This document shows positions 3,583-44,146 of a stretch of DNA of 64,000 nucleotides, piece by piece. Each line of letters begins with the position of its first letter. The stretch's first letter is position 1. Origin of the DNA: Natrinema salinisoli (GTDB taxonomy: Archaea > Halobacteriota > Halobacteria > Halobacteriales > Natrialbaceae); NCBI RefSeq assembly GCF_020405205.1, contig NZ_CP084469.1:2480001-2544000 (forward strand), in the 5' to 3' direction. The translations under genes and the position numbers were made by a program. Under the pieces are notes generated by a model. The model ran no database searches. It saw only the letters and a program-made list of their open reading frames with translations, and had not been told where the DNA came from.

Positions 3583-4833
3583 TCAAACGGGCTCCCGAAG
3601 CGCCCACACGTCCGCGAGCGGCTCCAGCCGACTCGGCTCCGCCCCACGTTCAGTGAGGATCCCACAGTGGAACAGCATCGCCTTCAGTTGGAACACCGTG
3701 GGCGAGTGGTAGACTGATCCGTCCTCGAGCGCCGCGGGCCGAAGCTCGCCGTCCGTAGTCAGAACCCGACTCCGGACGCCGTCGGTCCCGCGGACGAACA
3801 GCTCGACGGTAAACGACGGATGCAACTCGTGCAAATACTCCACGACGTCGACGAGCGACGGCTCCGTGATCCCGTCCTCGTGCATGTGCTGGAGTTCGCG
3901 GACGAGCAGCTCCGTCGCCTCGTAGTCGAACAGCACGCGGCGGGCCAACTGGCCCCACGCCGGCGCGAGATCGACGAACCGTTTTCCCGATCGGTACCAG
4001 GTTTCAAACTCCTCGAGGGCCGCCTCGACGGACCCGTAGCGCGCCGTCGCGAACCGGACGACCTCCTCGCCGAGCGCGGTGAGTTCGATGTCTTCGGACC
4101 GAACGCCGTCCTCGATAAGACCCAGGAATTCCGCTCCCTGTCGAGCGCTATCGACGGCGCTGACGACCTTGTACTCGGACAGCAGCGATTCGGTATCGCC
4201 AGCCGCGTAGTGGGCCAGCGGATAGCCGAGGTAGTTCTTGGGATGGTTCAGGCCGAACGACGCGTCCGCGACACCCTGCGCGCCGGCCTGAAACCGGAGC
4301 GCCGTCGCCTCGGTCGTCGTCCGATTGCCGACGACGCGGGGCACCTCGAGCGGGTCCACGCGCCCCGCCGAATCGACGCCGAGCACGCCGACGTTCAACT
4401 CCCGCGCGAGCGTGCGGTCGGTCTCGGAGATCGACGCCGCCGGCGCGGCGAGGTAGGCCGCGTTGGCCTCGTGGAGCCGGTCGTAGGCCTGGAGGATCCC
4501 GCGCTGCGTATCGACACCGTCGCTCGTCTCCCCCTTCGCCTCGATGGCGATCAACGGCGGCTCGTCGCCGAGTCGTTCGACGGCGAGGAGGTCCGACTCG
4601 AGCGCTCGAACGCCCACGAGATCCGGATAGCCGCCGCCGATCCGGACGTGGTTGAACGGTGCCAGACAGTCGCGGACGGCCGCGTCGACGGGCTGTCCGG
4701 GGAGCCACTCGTCCCTCGAGAACTGGGTGTCGGCTACCGCATACGCGGTCGACTCGTCGTCTGTCGGAAAGAGCCGCCGCTTCGTATGGGCCAGCACCTG
4801 TGGTTCCGAGAGCGACCGAGCCGCGCTACTCAT
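3583..4833 (-). CDS. uncharacterised protein with PD-(D/E)XK nuclease-like core
   Basis: I do not recognise a named family for this 416-residue protein. Its N-terminal half has YPDLVGV (about residues 69-75) and, after a short strand pair, LIAIEAKG (about 94-101). This is the D...E-X-K spacing of PD-(D/E)XK nucleases, and RGILQAYDRLHEA follows as the expected helix. The C-terminal half is mostly helical, with repeated statements of winged-helix character (ELTALGEEVVRFA) and a domain ending VFQLKAMLFHCGIL. DNA cleavage or repair is therefore possible, but specificity is unknown. It stands alone on its strand with no operon partner, 800 bp from the ORB array. Confidence 0.6.
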   Translation of the reverse strand: MSSAARSLSEPQVLAHTKRRLFPTDDESTAYAVADTQFSRDEWLPGQPVDAAVRDCLAPFNHVRIGGGYPDLVGVRALESDLLAVERLGDEPPLIAIEAKGETSDGVDTQRGILQAYDRLHEANAAYLAAPAASISETDRTLARELNVGVLGVDSAGRVDPLEVPRVVGNRTTTEATALRFQAGAQGVADASFGLNHPKNYLGYPLAHYAAGDTESLLSEYKVVSAVDSARQGAEFLGLIEDGVRSEDIELTALGEEVVRFATARYGSVEAALEEFETWYRSGKRFVDLAPAWGQLARRVLFDYEATELLVRELQHMHEDGITEPSLVDVVEYLHELHPSFTVELFVRGTDGVRSRVLTTDGELRPAALEDGSVYHSPTVFQLKAMLFHCGILTERGAEPSRLEPLADVWALREPV

Positions 4834-5054
4834 GGTTCTCGATTGGACAGGAGCCCCAATAATGTTCTGGCGATCAGACGGCTCTACGGCCCGAGATCCC
4901 GTTCTCGGATGGAAACTGCACTGCTACGAGGACCGGTCGTCGAACGCGACACAGTATTTATCTCGTCTGACATGGTCGCCCCACCCATGGTTTGGAGTGA
5001 CATACCATGTGAAGTGCGACGATACCTGACCGCACCCGCTACCGAGGTGATACG

Positions 5055-6692
5055 ATGAGTTCGAAGCCGCGGAGCCGTTGGGGATGGGGGTTCGAGGGCG
5101 AGATGATCGACGAGACCGAACTCCGCGAGCGGAAGGAGTTCCTGGAGTCTACGCTCGGCTTTCCGGAGCGTCCCGTCCTCGATCCCGTCCCGCTGGCCGA
5201 CGCAACGATCCCCGATCCAGCGATCGAGATTCCCGACGCGCTCGCGGATTTCTGTACGTCGGACCGAGCCGTTCGAGCCAGGCGAACCTACGGCATGGCT
5301 CGTCCGGAGAACGTCCGGGCGTTCCACGGGGATTTCACGCCCGCCCCGGATATCGTCGCGCGACCGACGACGGAGACGGAGGTCGAGGCGGTACTCGCGT
5401 GGGCCTCCGAACAGCGCGTCGCCGTGTCTCCGGTTACCGGCGGCACCGGCGTCGCCGGTGGGACGGGGCCGCCGGAGGGAGGCGACCGCGCTGGCTACGC
5501 GGGTACGATCGCCCTCGATCTCAGGAACCTGAACGACGTCCTCGAGGTCGACGAAAAATCGCGAACCGCACTGATAGAGGGCGGCACCCTGGGGCCGGAT
5601 ATCAACCGCCAACTCGACGAGTACGGGCTTCACCTCCGGCATTATCCGCAGTCGTATCGGCTCTCGGGGCTCGGCGGATGGATCGCGACCCGATCCGGCG
5701 GTCACTACGCGACCAGGTACACCCACATCGACGAGCTCGTCGAGAGCGTCCGGATGGTCTGCCCGGCGGGAACGTTCGAAACCCAGCGGCTCCCCGCCCA
5801 CGGCGCCGGTCCGGACGCGAACCGGCTCGTCTGTGGCTCCGAGGGCAGTCTCGGCGTCATCACGCAGGCGTGGATGCAGGTCGAACCGCGACCCCAGTAC
5901 CGATCGGACGCAGCAGTGTACTTCGACGGAATCCTCGAGGCCGCGGAGGCGATACGCCGGATCGTTCAGGCGAAACTCTATCCCGCGAACTGTCGCCTCC
6001 ACGATCGCGTGGAGACGAGCCTGTACGGGATGGACGAGGTCGAAAACGAGCTCGTCATCCTGGGGTTCGAATCGACTGACCAGCCGACGGACCCAGCCCT
6101 CGATCGAGCGCTCGAAATCTGCGAGGCGGAGGGCGGAGCCTGTCCGGACGGACCGGACCATTACGGCCCGGGCTACGGCCACGACCGCCCCGAGGACAGC
6201 GACGTAGTCCGCTGGGGTGAGGCGTTCCAGCTCGGCGGCTCCGGGAGTACCGATCTCCCGCTTTGCGTCGTCGGCGGAACCGTCGAGACCGCGGTGACGT
6301 GGGACCGCTTCCCGGAGTTTCACGAGTCGATGCTCGCGGCCGTCACTGATGCGCTCGACGCAGAATGTGGTATGGGACACGTATCGACTCGCTTTACGCA
6401 CGTCTATCCGGACGGTCCCGCCGTTTATTACACGTTCCGCGCACCCGGCGATCCCGATCCCGATCGGCGGATCGAACAGTGGCGGCGGATCAAACGCGCC
6501 GGCCTCGACACCGTCATGGAGTACGACCTGACGCCGACGCACCACCACGCCGTCGGCCGGGATCACAAGGAGTGGTACGCGGAGCAGATCCCCGAAAACT
6601 ACGGGGAGGCACTGCGCGCAGTGAAAGGTGTCCTCGACCCAGCGGGGGTAATGAATCCCGGCGTCCTCGTCGATTCACCGGATCGCGACTGA
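5055..6692 (+). CDS. FAD-binding oxidase, alkylglycerone-phosphate-synthase-like
   Basis: This 545-residue flavoprotein belongs to the VAO/PCMH group. It starts with SRWGWGFEGE, typical of alkyldihydroxyacetonephosphate synthase (AGPS). A PCMH FAD-binding domain follows (about 95-280: PVTGGTGVAGGTG, RLSGLGGWIATRSGGHYATRY, then CGSEGSLGVIT). A C-terminal cap carries HHHAVGRDHKEWY near residue 500, matching the AGPS active-site His cluster. In eukaryotes AGPS makes ether lipids by exchanging the acyl chain of acyl-DHAP for an alkyl chain. Archaea make ether lipids by a different route, so the substrate here is unknown and may be a hydroxy acid or sugar acid. GAGGTGAT at about 5045 is a good ribosome binding site for the ATG at 5055. 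Confidence 0.8.
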   Translation: MSSKPRSRWGWGFEGEMIDETELRERKEFLESTLGFPERPVLDPVPLADATIPDPAIEIPDALADFCTSDRAVRARRTYGMARPENVRAFHGDFTPAPDIVARPTTETEVEAVLAWASEQRVAVSPVTGGTGVAGGTGPPEGGDRAGYAGTIALDLRNLNDVLEVDEKSRTALIEGGTLGPDINRQLDEYGLHLRHYPQSYRLSGLGGWIATRSGGHYATRYTHIDELVESVRMVCPAGTFETQRLPAHGAGPDANRLVCGSEGSLGVITQAWMQVEPRPQYRSDAAVYFDGILEAAEAIRRIVQAKLYPANCRLHDRVETSLYGMDEVENELVILGFESTDQPTDPALDRALEICEAEGGACPDGPDHYGPGYGHDRPEDSDVVRWGEAFQLGGSGSTDLPLCVVGGTVETAVTWDRFPEFHESMLAAVTDALDAECGMGHVSTRFTHVYPDGPAVYYTFRAPGDPDPDRRIEQWRRIKRAGLDTVMEYDLTPTHHHAVGRDHKEWYAEQIPENYGEALRAVKGVLDPAGVMNPGVLVDSPDRD

Positions 6693-41345: not shown

Positions 41346-41366
41346 ACACGCACCTAGCCGGAACCA

Positions 41367-41374
41367 GTATAAGA
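41367..41374 (-). promoter_or_regulatory. TATA box of gltB
   Basis: CTTATACT on the minus strand lies 22-29 nt upstream of the gltB start, so the transcript should be leaderless or nearly so. Confidence 0.6.
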
Positions 41375-41585
41375 GGCTAATCCATTATGACTAAGCGTAT
41401 TATTAACACATATAGTCTAATATAAGGTATACTGAAAACCCTTAATCACGGTTGACCCCGCGAGAGAGCTGTCGCTGGTTTCGACCGGGACCCGTCTCGG
41501 AGAAGGACGTCCGTCACTGCCACTCGTCGAACCCCCCACCGGAAAGATCAACTTCCCGGTAGCGGGGAAATGTCAGAGGCACGTA

Positions 41586-41609
41586 GTGTTCACCCACCAG
41601 AGTGAACAC
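41586..41609. repeat. inverted repeat in the gltB-island gap
   Basis: GTGTTCAC, CCACCAGA, GTGAACAC: perfect 8-bp arms around an 8-nt spacer. It could be an operator or a small hairpin. The arms resemble the TTCAC half of the origin boxes but without the rest of the consensus. Confidence 0.45.
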
Positions 41610-41884
41610 CACATGGTTCTAATGAATTTCCTCGGGTAAACAATCTCGGGTTAAACGATTAGGGTTGTGTGAAACGGTCACTCAAGAACGGCCGATCGAG
41701 ACCGGTCGGTCCGGGGGTCAGTTGGTAATTCACTCACTCGAAGAGAGAACGACGGCCCAATTGGCTCACCGTCCTCCGTCTTGCGTGTCCGGGTTGCTCA
41801 TCCTCGACTGTTCGTCTGTCCGGATGGGTCTCGGCTTCAATAGCCACAGTACGTGAGCCCCTGATTCCAACGCGAGATGGCGAT

Positions 41885-42403
41885 TCAGTAGTGCCCTATG
41901 ACTCGAAGTACGCCGAACTCGATCCCCGCGAGCAACAGCGTGGCGACGAGAATAATGGGGAAAACGATGACAAAATGAATGATGATACTGCTACTCTCGT
42001 GGCTGACGGTGAACATCGCCCAGAAGACGTTGTACGTGACAGCGAAGACCCCGAGTGTTGGACTAACCAACAACCCACGGCCGAACAACCAAAGTGCCGG
42101 TAGTATCATTCCAGTTAGCAGTAACCAAAATACGACGAGTACCGCAGGAGCTAACAGTACATCGAGCGGACCGGTGAGGTCGGCCCTCATATCGTTTAAA
42201 CCGGGATCGAGAAACAACTGTCGTATGATCCACATACAAAAAAACAGCGCGCCCCCGAGGAGACAGCTAGCGAGAAACGTTCGTCTGGACTCGGTCACTC
42301 GCGATCGGAAATAGTAGCCGAGGCCTGCTACGAGCGCCCCGACGATGCCAGCTATCTTGAGTATCGTTTGTTCGTCCAAAAACAGTGCTGATGACGTGTC
42401 CAT
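41885..42403 (-). CDS. five-helix membrane protein of unknown function (AT-rich island)
   Basis: This 172-residue protein has about five hydrophobic segments (near 14-31, 43-65, 80-103, 108-130, 137-163) and no recognisable catalytic or transport motif. The only notable residues are Cys47 and Cys56 in helix 2 and one His near the C-terminal end (VIGHY). It starts with an ATG at 42403, with a TATA-like AT stretch at 42423-42431, predicting a leaderless transcript separate from the upstream gene. It lies in the low-GC island between gltB and proS, just downstream of a Tat-exported protein gene on the same strand. A partner role (immunity, transport or anchoring) is possible but unproven. Confidence 0.6.
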   Translation of the reverse strand: MDTSSALFLDEQTILKIAGIVGALVAGLGYYFRSRVTESRRTFLASCLLGGALFFCMWIIRQLFLDPGLNDMRADLTGPLDVLLAPAVLVVFWLLLTGMILPALWLFGRGLLVSPTLGVFAVTYNVFWAMFTVSHESSSIIIHFVIVFPIILVATLLLAGIEFGVLRVIGHY

Positions 42404-42528
42404 ATTTATACCCTATATACCATTAAATAATAAATCTTTTGTATTTATCATATAAATATTATTTGAATATTCAGTTTTAAATTCCGGAACCGGACACCGA
42501 AGCAAGGCACCGATAACCGCCAGAGAGA

Positions 42529-43782
42529 TTAGAAGCCCAGCATGCAGGCGCAGGGCCGTGCCACCGAGGAACTGTGATTGTGGGAGTGGTGTTCTTGGTG
42601 CCGGGTCCCGTTTTCAGCGTCCGATTTTCCTTCGGTACTGAATCCACAGAACAAACCTGTGCACGGGATCTCGAAACCGTCGTTGAGGATCGCAGCTATT
42701 TTCCCGTCGTGCGTATCGACACCACTTCTTCCTGCCTGATACAGTGATGATCCGGCTTTACCATCATCGCTGGCGTTGTCGTTGTTCTCCCAGCAATCTC
42801 GGACCTCACTTCGGGATTTGTTGTATCTCCAGTCGATCTCGTCAATCGGAATCCTCCCACGAACTTTATTATGATCCTCAGGATCGCGGTGGACCTGTCC
42901 GACGACGTCGAACGAACTGTTGGAAGAGCTCACGTCGTACAGGCGGATGTGCACTTGGGAGGCAACCCGCCAGTCGGCACGCCTCATAACGTGCCGATCT
43001 GTTTCGACGACATCTCCATCGTAATTGAGATATCTCGATTGCGCGTAGGGATTGTCGTTTGAACCTCCGGGTATTAAGGGGAGATCGCCGGCAAGATCGA
43101 GGATAGCATCTAGGCCCGATGTCCAGCCACAGGCGTCTTCCATGAATTTGCCAACTTTGGTAGCGTCACCATCCTTGAAAGCAAGATTCGTTGGTGCTGT
43201 TCGCTCCTTTGGATCTCGCCGCGCCCTGCTCTTAGAAGAGTAGTTGTACAGCGGGATATCGTCGATGGCAGTGTGATACTGCGGAGCCAGGTCGCCACCG
43301 AACATCGGATGGTTGGTGTTTCTCTGTGTTTTGATCTTCGCTTCGGCCCGATTGTGTTCGGTGCTCGTGCCGATGACCTTCGTCGTTTCTGTCGTGTACG
43401 TCAGACCATCGTTTTGAACGATCTCTTCGGAGAGCCACTCCTCGGCAATATAAACTGGTTCCTCCTCGAACACGGGATCGCCAAAATGTTCAGCGAGGTC
43501 CTCACTCCGGAAGATCCGCTCGTGAACGAACACATCGTCGTTGTACCGCTGAATTTCGCCTTTGAGTGTTCCTTTGGCCTCGACGGGCACTCCCTCTTTG
43601 TTTCCTGGTTCGGCGGCACCGAGTGCGGTGTATTCTCTATCGTCGTCCTCTGCGGCGACCGATCCCAAAGTAGCCAGAGAAGCCGTGCTCGCCAGACCAG
43701 TCAGGAACGTCCGCCGACCATTCATATCCGATCCAGTGTTGTCCTCGTTACCTATACTACCTAAATTATCTCTATCTACCAT
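42529..43782 (-). CDS. Tat-exported protein with a Cys/His-rich C-terminus (AT-rich island)
   Basis: This 417-residue protein has a twin-arginine signal at 23-44 (RRTFLTGLASTASLATLGSVAA), so it is folded before export. The mature part contains a region (about 196-330: PTNLAFKDGDATKVGKFMEDACGW and, later, VHIRLYDVSSSNSSFDVVGQVHRD) that resembles, weakly, LssY C-terminal-type domains. The tail is distinctive: C374 and C379 (PCTGLFCGF), then a His cluster (RHQEHHSHNH, 394-403) and C411/C413 (PCACMLGF) at the very end. The cysteine-rich C-terminus behind a larger Tat-borne body recalls microhalocin precursors such as HalC8 in layout, but not in sequence. I chose the ATG at 43782 because a TATA element lies about 30 nt upstream; Met20 is an alternative. 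Confidence 0.6.
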   Translation of the reverse strand: MVDRDNLGSIGNEDNTGSDMNGRRTFLTGLASTASLATLGSVAAEDDDREYTALGAAEPGNKEGVPVEAKGTLKGEIQRYNDDVFVHERIFRSEDLAEHFGDPVFEEEPVYIAEEWLSEEIVQNDGLTYTTETTKVIGTSTEHNRAEAKIKTQRNTNHPMFGGDLAPQYHTAIDDIPLYNYSSKSRARRDPKERTAPTNLAFKDGDATKVGKFMEDACGWTSGLDAILDLAGDLPLIPGGSNDNPYAQSRYLNYDGDVVETDRHVMRRADWRVASQVHIRLYDVSSSNSSFDVVGQVHRDPEDHNKVRGRIPIDEIDWRYNKSRSEVRDCWENNDNASDDGKAGSSLYQAGRSGVDTHDGKIAAILNDGFEIPCTGLFCGFSTEGKSDAENGTRHQEHHSHNHSSSVARPCACMLGF

Positions 43783-44146
43783 CGCAATATTTGGTAGTTA
43801 TTTCAAGTGGATAAATATTACTATTTTATTGGATTTTAAATTGTCACTAACCGCCGTATACGGAGAAGGCGGCGGTTTTGGTCGTGACAGAAGATCGTCT
43901 AGCAGTACGTCCGAGATTTGGTCGTGTCGCTGAACCGTTTAGACTTCCAAGTCAATCAAGCAAAGACGCTCTTCCGTAGTCTATCGGAAGGAATTGACAG
44001 CAATGCGATCAATGAGGCCGTTTGAGGGAATACGATATCCATGCGTACCGTCACCGGATTTTTACAGCAGAAATGTGGCTACAAGAACCTATATTTAAAA
44101 GAAGACGACCCGGGAAATAGTTGCCCGCTGTAAGCTGGTAAAAGAC
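43783..44146. other. 364-bp AT-rich gap with the promoter of the Tat protein
   Basis: The part at 43783-43845 is AT-rich and contains a TATA-like element at 43811-43818 for the minus-strand gene. The part from about 43918 shows a plus-strand frame fragment (SLNRLDFQVNQAKTLFRSL, then SEGIDSNAINEAV and stop) that looks like a decayed protein end of unknown type. The last 60 bp hold an AT-rich run (tttaaaag) after the proS stop, a possible terminator region. Confidence 0.45.

What the first reader, a model, noticed from the sequence alone, without database searches (positions are those of the whole stretch)
41346..44146. AT-rich island between gltB and proS with a Tat-exported Cys/His-rich protein and a membrane partner
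Both genes are in a 2.8-kb region of much lower GC than the housekeeping neighbours, with a decayed frame fragment at its right edge, all typical of transferred DNA. The Tat-exported protein ends in a tail with C374, C379, a His cluster and C411/C413, and the 172-residue five-helix protein downstream could be an immunity, anchoring or transport partner. The layout recalls, but does not match in sequence, the HalC8 microhalocin precursors. This is my best candidate for an undescribed secreted-effector or metal-binding system.
Basis: partly seen in the sequence, partly recalled or inferred. Interest (0 to 1): 0.65.

Follow-up and report, generated by a model that had tools for sequence, protein, structure and literature searches.

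The report
Secreted archaeal toxin-like protein with membrane partner
Two neighbouring genes of a salt-loving microbe make an exported protein and a small membrane protein that recur together across many archaea and look like an undescribed toxin with the protein that protects its maker, although nobody has yet tested this.

Summary
Both genes are real, conserved and AT-rich, and they sit in a slot between proS and gltB that is close to empty in 24 of 29 Natrinema genomes. The conserved part is the ~300-residue core, with invariant H278, H298, D300 and H304 across 49 relatives, methanogens included. A relative's core is modelled confidently (pLDDT 90, pTM 0.88) and matches no solved or viral fold.

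The two genes do travel together, although the partner varies widely. In 31 of 37 loci (24 of 27 after collapsing close relatives) a small polytopic membrane gene follows directly, against 0 of 163 control genes. Three genomes keep an intact partner but have lost the effector. Three loci carry tandem partner arrays of up to four genes. One locus has a 79%-identical core with an unrelated partner.

Best explanation: an exported antagonistic effector (halocin-like in role, not in family) with a cognate membrane immunity protein. No match in Pfam, NCBIfam, PADLOC or PDB sequences. Toxicity and immunity are inferred, not shown.

The parts
42529..43782 (-). Tat-exported effector-like protein, 417 aa (possible internal start at M20, 43725); twin-arginine signal at R23-R24
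   Evidence: ORF; RR invariant in A1; dN/dS core 0.13
42871..42957 (-). Invariant motif Q276-x-H278-x-R280 ... H298-x-D300-P-x-x-H304 of the core
   Evidence: H278, H298, D300 and H304 invariant in 49 sequences; Q276, H278, R280, H298, D300 and H304 invariant in 28
42532..42687 (-). C-terminal Cys/His tail (residues 366-417), not conserved in the family
   Evidence: only in the window and N. mahii; dN/dS about 0.8 on few sites
41885..42403 (-). Polytopic membrane partner, 172 aa, proposed immunity protein
   Evidence: intact orphan copies in G067 and G069
43811..43842 (.). AT-rich 32-nt repeat upstream of the effector gene (possible promoter element, inferred)
   Evidence: 75% direct repeat of 42452-42483
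42452..42483 (.). AT-rich 32-nt repeat upstream of the membrane gene (possible separate promoter, inferred)
43967..44021 (.). Relic of an IS1595-family transposase at the right edge of the insert
   Evidence: 82% identity over 55 nt
41665..44146 (.). Extent of the insert relative to empty proS-gltB slots
   Evidence: similarity to empty slots ends at about 41663-41671; the right limit is the proS stop

Best explanation
The pair is a secreted antagonistic effector with its cognate immunity protein. Step 1 (signal shown in sequence): the 417-aa protein carries a twin-arginine signal and should be exported folded. Step 2 (inferred): its conserved core, an enzyme-like domain with three invariant His and one Asp on two neighbouring strands, acts on the outer face or membrane of related archaea, perhaps as a hydrolase or metal-dependent enzyme on a lipid or envelope target. 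Step 3 (inferred): the small 4-6-TM protein in the producer's cytoplasmic membrane blocks the effector or shields its target. Step 4 (pattern shown, cause inferred): competitors keep or collect partner genes without the effector because those genes protect them, which gives orphans, arrays and partner swaps at recombination-prone slots.
For: Pairing: 31 of 37 loci, or 24 of 27 after collapsing cores above 85% identity, have a 90-260-aa gene with at least 3 TM directly 3' on the same strand, against 0 of 163 control genes (Fisher p about 1e-27); methanogen relatives show it too. Orphan partners: G067 and G069 hold only the partner, intact, at the same slot, and at another locus G061 keeps an intact partner beside a ~50-residue effector remnant with 2 stops. 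Arrays of non-identical partner paralogues: four in L077, three in L083 (one frame broken), two in L082. Partner swap: L076 and L079 cores are 79% identical but their partners are unrelated. The partner diverges faster than the core (dN 0.100 against 0.036; lower identity in 84 of 95 pairs). Distribution is patchy: 14 of 125 family genomes, plus plasmids. Orphan immunity genes and arrays are the documented signature of effector-immunity displacement in Vibrio T6SS (PMC5361080).
Against: No toxicity, immunity or secretion data exist. One GC-rich chromosomal Natrinema lineage (L034, L069-L071) keeps the core without a small polytopic partner (its next gene encodes a 2-TM protein), and L078, L120 and L068 show none. 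Some relatives of the core in other archaea are fused to PPC or NosD repeat domains in large secreted proteins, which would also suit an extracellular enzyme or adhesin. A swap to an unrelated partner beside a 79%-identical core (L076/L079) strains strict cognate specificity. Membrane segments were called by hydropathy only.
Confidence: 0.56

Rival explanations
1. A secreted enzyme or binding protein with a membrane partner that anchors it, receives its signal or takes up its product; no antagonism is involved.
For: Fixed gene order across haloarchaea and methanogens; fusions to PPC and NosD repeat domains; the core is more conserved than the partner; the chromosomal lineage L034 lacks the partner.
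Against: Intact partners persist where the effector has been lost in three genomes; partners form arrays of diverged paralogues and can be swapped for unrelated ones, which a dedicated anchor or receptor would not be expected to show.
Confidence: 0.27
2. A halocin-like precursor in which a protease releases the C-terminal Cys/His tail as the active peptide.
For: HalC8 and HalH4 release active C-terminal parts (PMC12893001). The tail has 4 Cys and 5 His in the window protein and keeps all four Cys in N. mahii. A Tat precursor with a hydrophobic Cys-rich end sits next to the N. mahii copy.
Against: The tail is absent from every other relative. dN/dS is about 0.8 in the tail against 0.13 in the core. 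Relatives with a different tail (L029, L030) or none (L031, L033) keep 78-80%-identical partners.
Confidence: 0.06
3. An envelope-level virus defence or superinfection-exclusion pair.
For: Accessory, low-GC, patchy and in a variable slot.
Against: No PADLOC match; no relative found in viral contigs with single-protein queries; orphan partners and partner arrays are not typical of such pairs.
Confidence: 0.07

Closest known systems
Halocins (HalC8, HalH4, HapP/HFX_0892 precursors)
   Same: Exported haloarchaeal proteins in accessory loci; HalC8-like and HalH4 precursors also start with a twin-arginine signal (sequence); two HalC8-like loci also have a small 2-TM gene directly downstream.
   Different: No family-level similarity: HalC8-like and HalH4 sequences score only 17 bits or less with the family model, as a shared signal peptide would. 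The conserved unit here is a 300-aa core with H/H/D/H, not a Cys-rich or helical peptide, and the partner is a separate polytopic gene.
T6SS effector-immunity modules and immunity arrays in Vibrio (PMC5361080)
   Same: Effector followed by immunity gene; orphan immunity genes and arrays of non-identical immunity paralogues; replacement by recombination.
   Different: No secretion apparatus nearby; Tat signal instead; archaeal; unrelated proteins.
LssY C-terminal domain (PF14067)
   Same: Weak similarity in two members (E 0.064); from memory, LssY_C also carries an HHxR motif followed by an H/D-rich motif.
   Different: Below the curated cut-off; the PF14067 model finds no family member in 61 haloarchaeal genomes.

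Membership tests
Secreted toxin-immunity pair (by role) | Effector carries an export signal | tested here: met
   RR signal invariant in the haloarchaeal alignment A1; secretion itself not shown
Secreted toxin-immunity pair (by role) | Dedicated partner gene linked to the effector | tested here: met
   31 of 37 loci against 0 of 163 controls
Secreted toxin-immunity pair (by role) | Orphan immunity genes and immunity arrays | tested here: met
   G067, G069, G061; L077, L082, L083
Secreted toxin-immunity pair (by role) | Effector is toxic and the partner neutralises it | not testable with these tools
   needs expression and overlay tests
Halocin C8 family | Cys-rich C-terminal peptide of HalC8 type | tested here: not met
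   4 Cys in an unconserved tail; no NCBIfam or Pfam hit; tblastn of a recalled HalC8 peptide finds other loci only; HalC8-like precursors score 17 bits or less
Halocin H4 family | Sequence similarity to HalH4 | tested here: not met
   4 bits with the A3 model, using a HalH4 sequence recalled from memory that agrees with the primers in PMC6759562
LssY_C (PF14067) | Match above the curated cut-off | tested here: not met
   best E 0.064 in 2 of 49 members; no hits over the cut-off in 61 and 197 genomes
Known anti-phage defence proteins | Match in PADLOC-DB | tested here: not met
   none
Metal-binding Cys/His tail protein | Cys/His tail conserved in homologues | tested here: not met
   tail only in the window and N. 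mahii

The most novel reading that the evidence does not exclude
A previously undescribed family of archaeal antagonistic enzymes, spread over haloarchaea and methanogens, with a fold that has no solved counterpart and a His3-Asp active site, paired with several unrelated families of exchangeable polytopic membrane immunity proteins kept as orphans and arrays.
Probability: 0.33. Interest if true: 0.8.

Novelty: new variant of a known kind. Interest (0 to 1): 0.6.

Why it matters
Few archaeal antagonistic proteins have been assigned genes, and immunity to halocins is poorly understood. This two-gene unit is widespread, recognisable by an invariant H...HxDxxxH motif, and found in genera with genetic tools or near relatives, so the toxin-immunity idea can be tested directly. 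A confidently modelled domain without a counterpart among solved structures is also a good target for structure determination.

Tried and rejected
Cys/His tail as metal site or released peptide: rejected because it is not conserved. Membership in HalC8 or HalH4: rejected. The N. mahii neighbouring cassette resembles HalC8 precursors in layout only; blastp E is 0.33 or worse, so it is not called a homologue. LssY_C and AftA_C: sub-threshold leads. PDB by sequence: nothing. The first fold with 14 sequences was poor (pLDDT 40) and was not used. Rfam: nothing. Partner families A9 and A10 compared with A8: unrelated by hhalign. The proS 3'-end repeat as a general integration site: found in N. mahii (265 nt, 98%) and G067 (35 nt), but not in the window, G069 or the empty slots, so it is recorded as a lead. 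Makarova et al. 2019 (mBio 10.1128/mBio.00715-19), the survey most likely to mention such genes, is not in the library, so prior mention of the family cannot be excluded.

Full report
OBSERVATION. Both reading frames are present where stated. The 417-aa protein begins with a twin-arginine signal (MNGRRTFLTGLAS...) and has C218, C330, C374, C379, C411 and C413; the 172-aa protein has 5-6 hydrophobic segments. The insert is 51% GC against 66% for the rest of the window, and GC3 is 0.59/0.63 against 0.88 in proS and gltB. Against the N. mahii copy (92% identity) the core has dN/dS 0.13 and the membrane gene 0.33, so both are real, selected genes. The right-edge fragment includes a 55-nt piece 82% identical to an IS1595-family transposase gene.

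THE SLOT. The window lies in a genome of the same genus as N. mahii, the nearest named record. All 29 genomes of the genus have the proS 3' end. Twenty-four have a short proS-gltB gap of 387-1065 bp, in one (G077) no gltB was found downstream, two carry both genes (this window and N. mahii), and two (G067, G069) carry only the membrane gene. The similarity of the window to empty slots ends at about 41663-41671, so the insert is about 41665-44146 and the left 320 bp of the reported island are ancestral. In N. mahii the slot also holds a second Tat-precursor cassette, with one internal stop codon, a hydrophobic Cys-rich end and an 88-aa membrane gene, bracketed by a 265-nt, 98% duplicate of the proS 3' end. 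In G067 the last 35 nt of proS recur downstream of the partner. No such repeat is seen in the window, in G069 or in the empty slots.

THE FAMILY. Neither window protein matches Pfam or NCBIfam above a cut-off, PADLOC or PDB sequences; PHROGs gives only a 15-bit hit of no weight. Profile searches find the Tat protein's core across haloarchaea (14 of 125 genomes of its family; 53 of 391 genomes of the class at E 0.001 including signal-peptide-only hits; more) and distant relatives in other families of the phylum that I take to be methanogens and related lineages. Public plasmid records mostly call them hypothetical proteins. The Cys/His tail occurs only in the window and N. mahii and evolves close to neutrally (dN/dS 0.81, but only 8 changes). 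Two relatives (L029, L030) end in a different short Cys/Pro tail, and L031-L033 have none, while their partners stay 78-80% identical where compared. The tail is therefore not the family's working part. Across 28 haloarchaeal members Y181, P197, Q276, H278, R280, H298, D300 and H304 (Y and P by alignment) are invariant. Across 49 members including the distant ones H278, H298, D300 and H304 remain.

STRUCTURE. With 49 sequences the core of relative L026 (32% identical to the window protein) gave pLDDT 90.4 and pTM 0.88: a mostly beta protein in which the residues equivalent to H278 and R280 lie on one strand and those equivalent to H298 and D300 on the next (mapped from the alignment; distances were not measured). 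Foldseek found no PDB match at E 0.001 or better (best 0.07, TM-scores below 0.25) and no viral match. The fold has no close solved counterpart. Whether it is new cannot be said without AlphaFold DB. LssY_C (PF14067) is a weak lead (E 0.064 in 2 of 49).

THE PARTNER. In 31 of 37 loci a same-strand gene of 90-260 aa with at least three predicted membrane segments follows within 300 bp. After collapsing cores above 85% identity this is 24 of 27. None of 163 control genes from the window and 25 Natrinema loci has such a neighbour by the same rule. The distant relatives show the same layout (151-aa membrane genes at the effector stop in L098 and L105). The partners are far more variable than the cores. 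The window-type and the large haloarchaeal partner family are related (hhalign 83%, E 9.5e-6), but two other groups are not detectably related to that large family, and L076/L079 share 79% core identity with unrelated partners. Exceptions: the GC-rich chromosomal lineage L034/L069-L071 (followed by a 2-TM protein), L074 (followed by a large 10-TM protein), L078, L120 and L068.

SIGNS OF IMMUNITY. (1) Partners survive without effectors: G067 and G069 at the proS slot, with intact frames (dN/dS 0.34-0.74), and G061 at another locus, where a 168-aa partner (161 of 168 residues identical to its G060 relative) follows a ~50-residue effector remnant with two stops. (2) Partners form tandem arrays of diverged copies: four in L077 (54-86% identical), three in L083 (one frame broken), two in L082. 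(3) The partner diverges faster than the core. (4) In Vibrio T6SS loci the same combination of retained orphan and arrayed immunity genes marks effector displacement (PMC5361080). These patterns are hard to explain if the membrane protein merely anchors or senses the secreted protein.

MECHANISM. I infer that the exported core acts on the envelope of related archaea and that the polytopic protein protects the producer's membrane or target. The invariant His/Asp set suggests an enzyme or metal site. Shown: export signal, pairing, orphan partners, arrays, invariant residues and the model. Inferred: secretion, toxicity, target, immunity and catalysis. The AT-rich repeats upstream of each gene (75% alike over 32 nt) may be separate promoters, which would let the partner work alone.

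COMPARISON AND NOVELTY. In role it resembles halocins and other effector-immunity pairs. It is not a member of the HalC8 or HalH4 families as tested (HalC8 peptide and HalH4 sequences were recalled from memory, the HalH4 one agreeing with primers in PMC6759562). Two HalC8-like plasmid loci also have a 68-aa 2-TM gene directly downstream, so a small membrane neighbour may be a shared design. The 2019 mBio survey of archaeal toxins could not be read, so an earlier mention of this family is possible.

Noticed in passing
L022:9817-11000 (N. mahii): Second cassette in the same proS-gltB slot: Tat precursor with one in-frame TGA, a hydrophobic Cys-rich C-terminus and an 88-aa membrane gene, bracketed by a 265-nt 98% duplicate of the proS 3' end. 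HalC8-like in layout, not in sequence.
   Followed up: partly
L037 (G067), about 120 nt downstream of the partner gene: The last 35 nt of proS, stop codon included, recur downstream of the orphan partner; with N. mahii this hints that cassettes enter at the proS 3' end.
   Followed up: partly
L077 (oriented 4167-5857) and L083: Arrays of four and three diverged partner paralogues behind one effector; the related genome G211 keeps only a 76-residue effector remnant and no partner genes at the same flanks.
   Followed up: partly
L101, L102, L107: The core domain occurs inside large secreted proteins of another archaeal family, fused to PPC repeats or NosD beta-helix repeats.
   Followed up: partly
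L182:3304-3510, L183:3299-3505: HalC8-like precursor genes in Halobacterium salinarum and Haloferax larsenii are directly followed by a conserved 68-aa 2-TM gene of unknown function.
   Followed up: partly
L034, L069, L070, L071: GC-rich (0.67) chromosomal Natrinema lineage of the same core with all invariant residues but followed by a 134-aa 2-TM protein; a divergent 3-TM gene lies upstream in L034.
   Followed up: partly
L079 vs L076: 79%-identical effector cores carry unrelated membrane partners, an apparent partner swap.
   Followed up: yes
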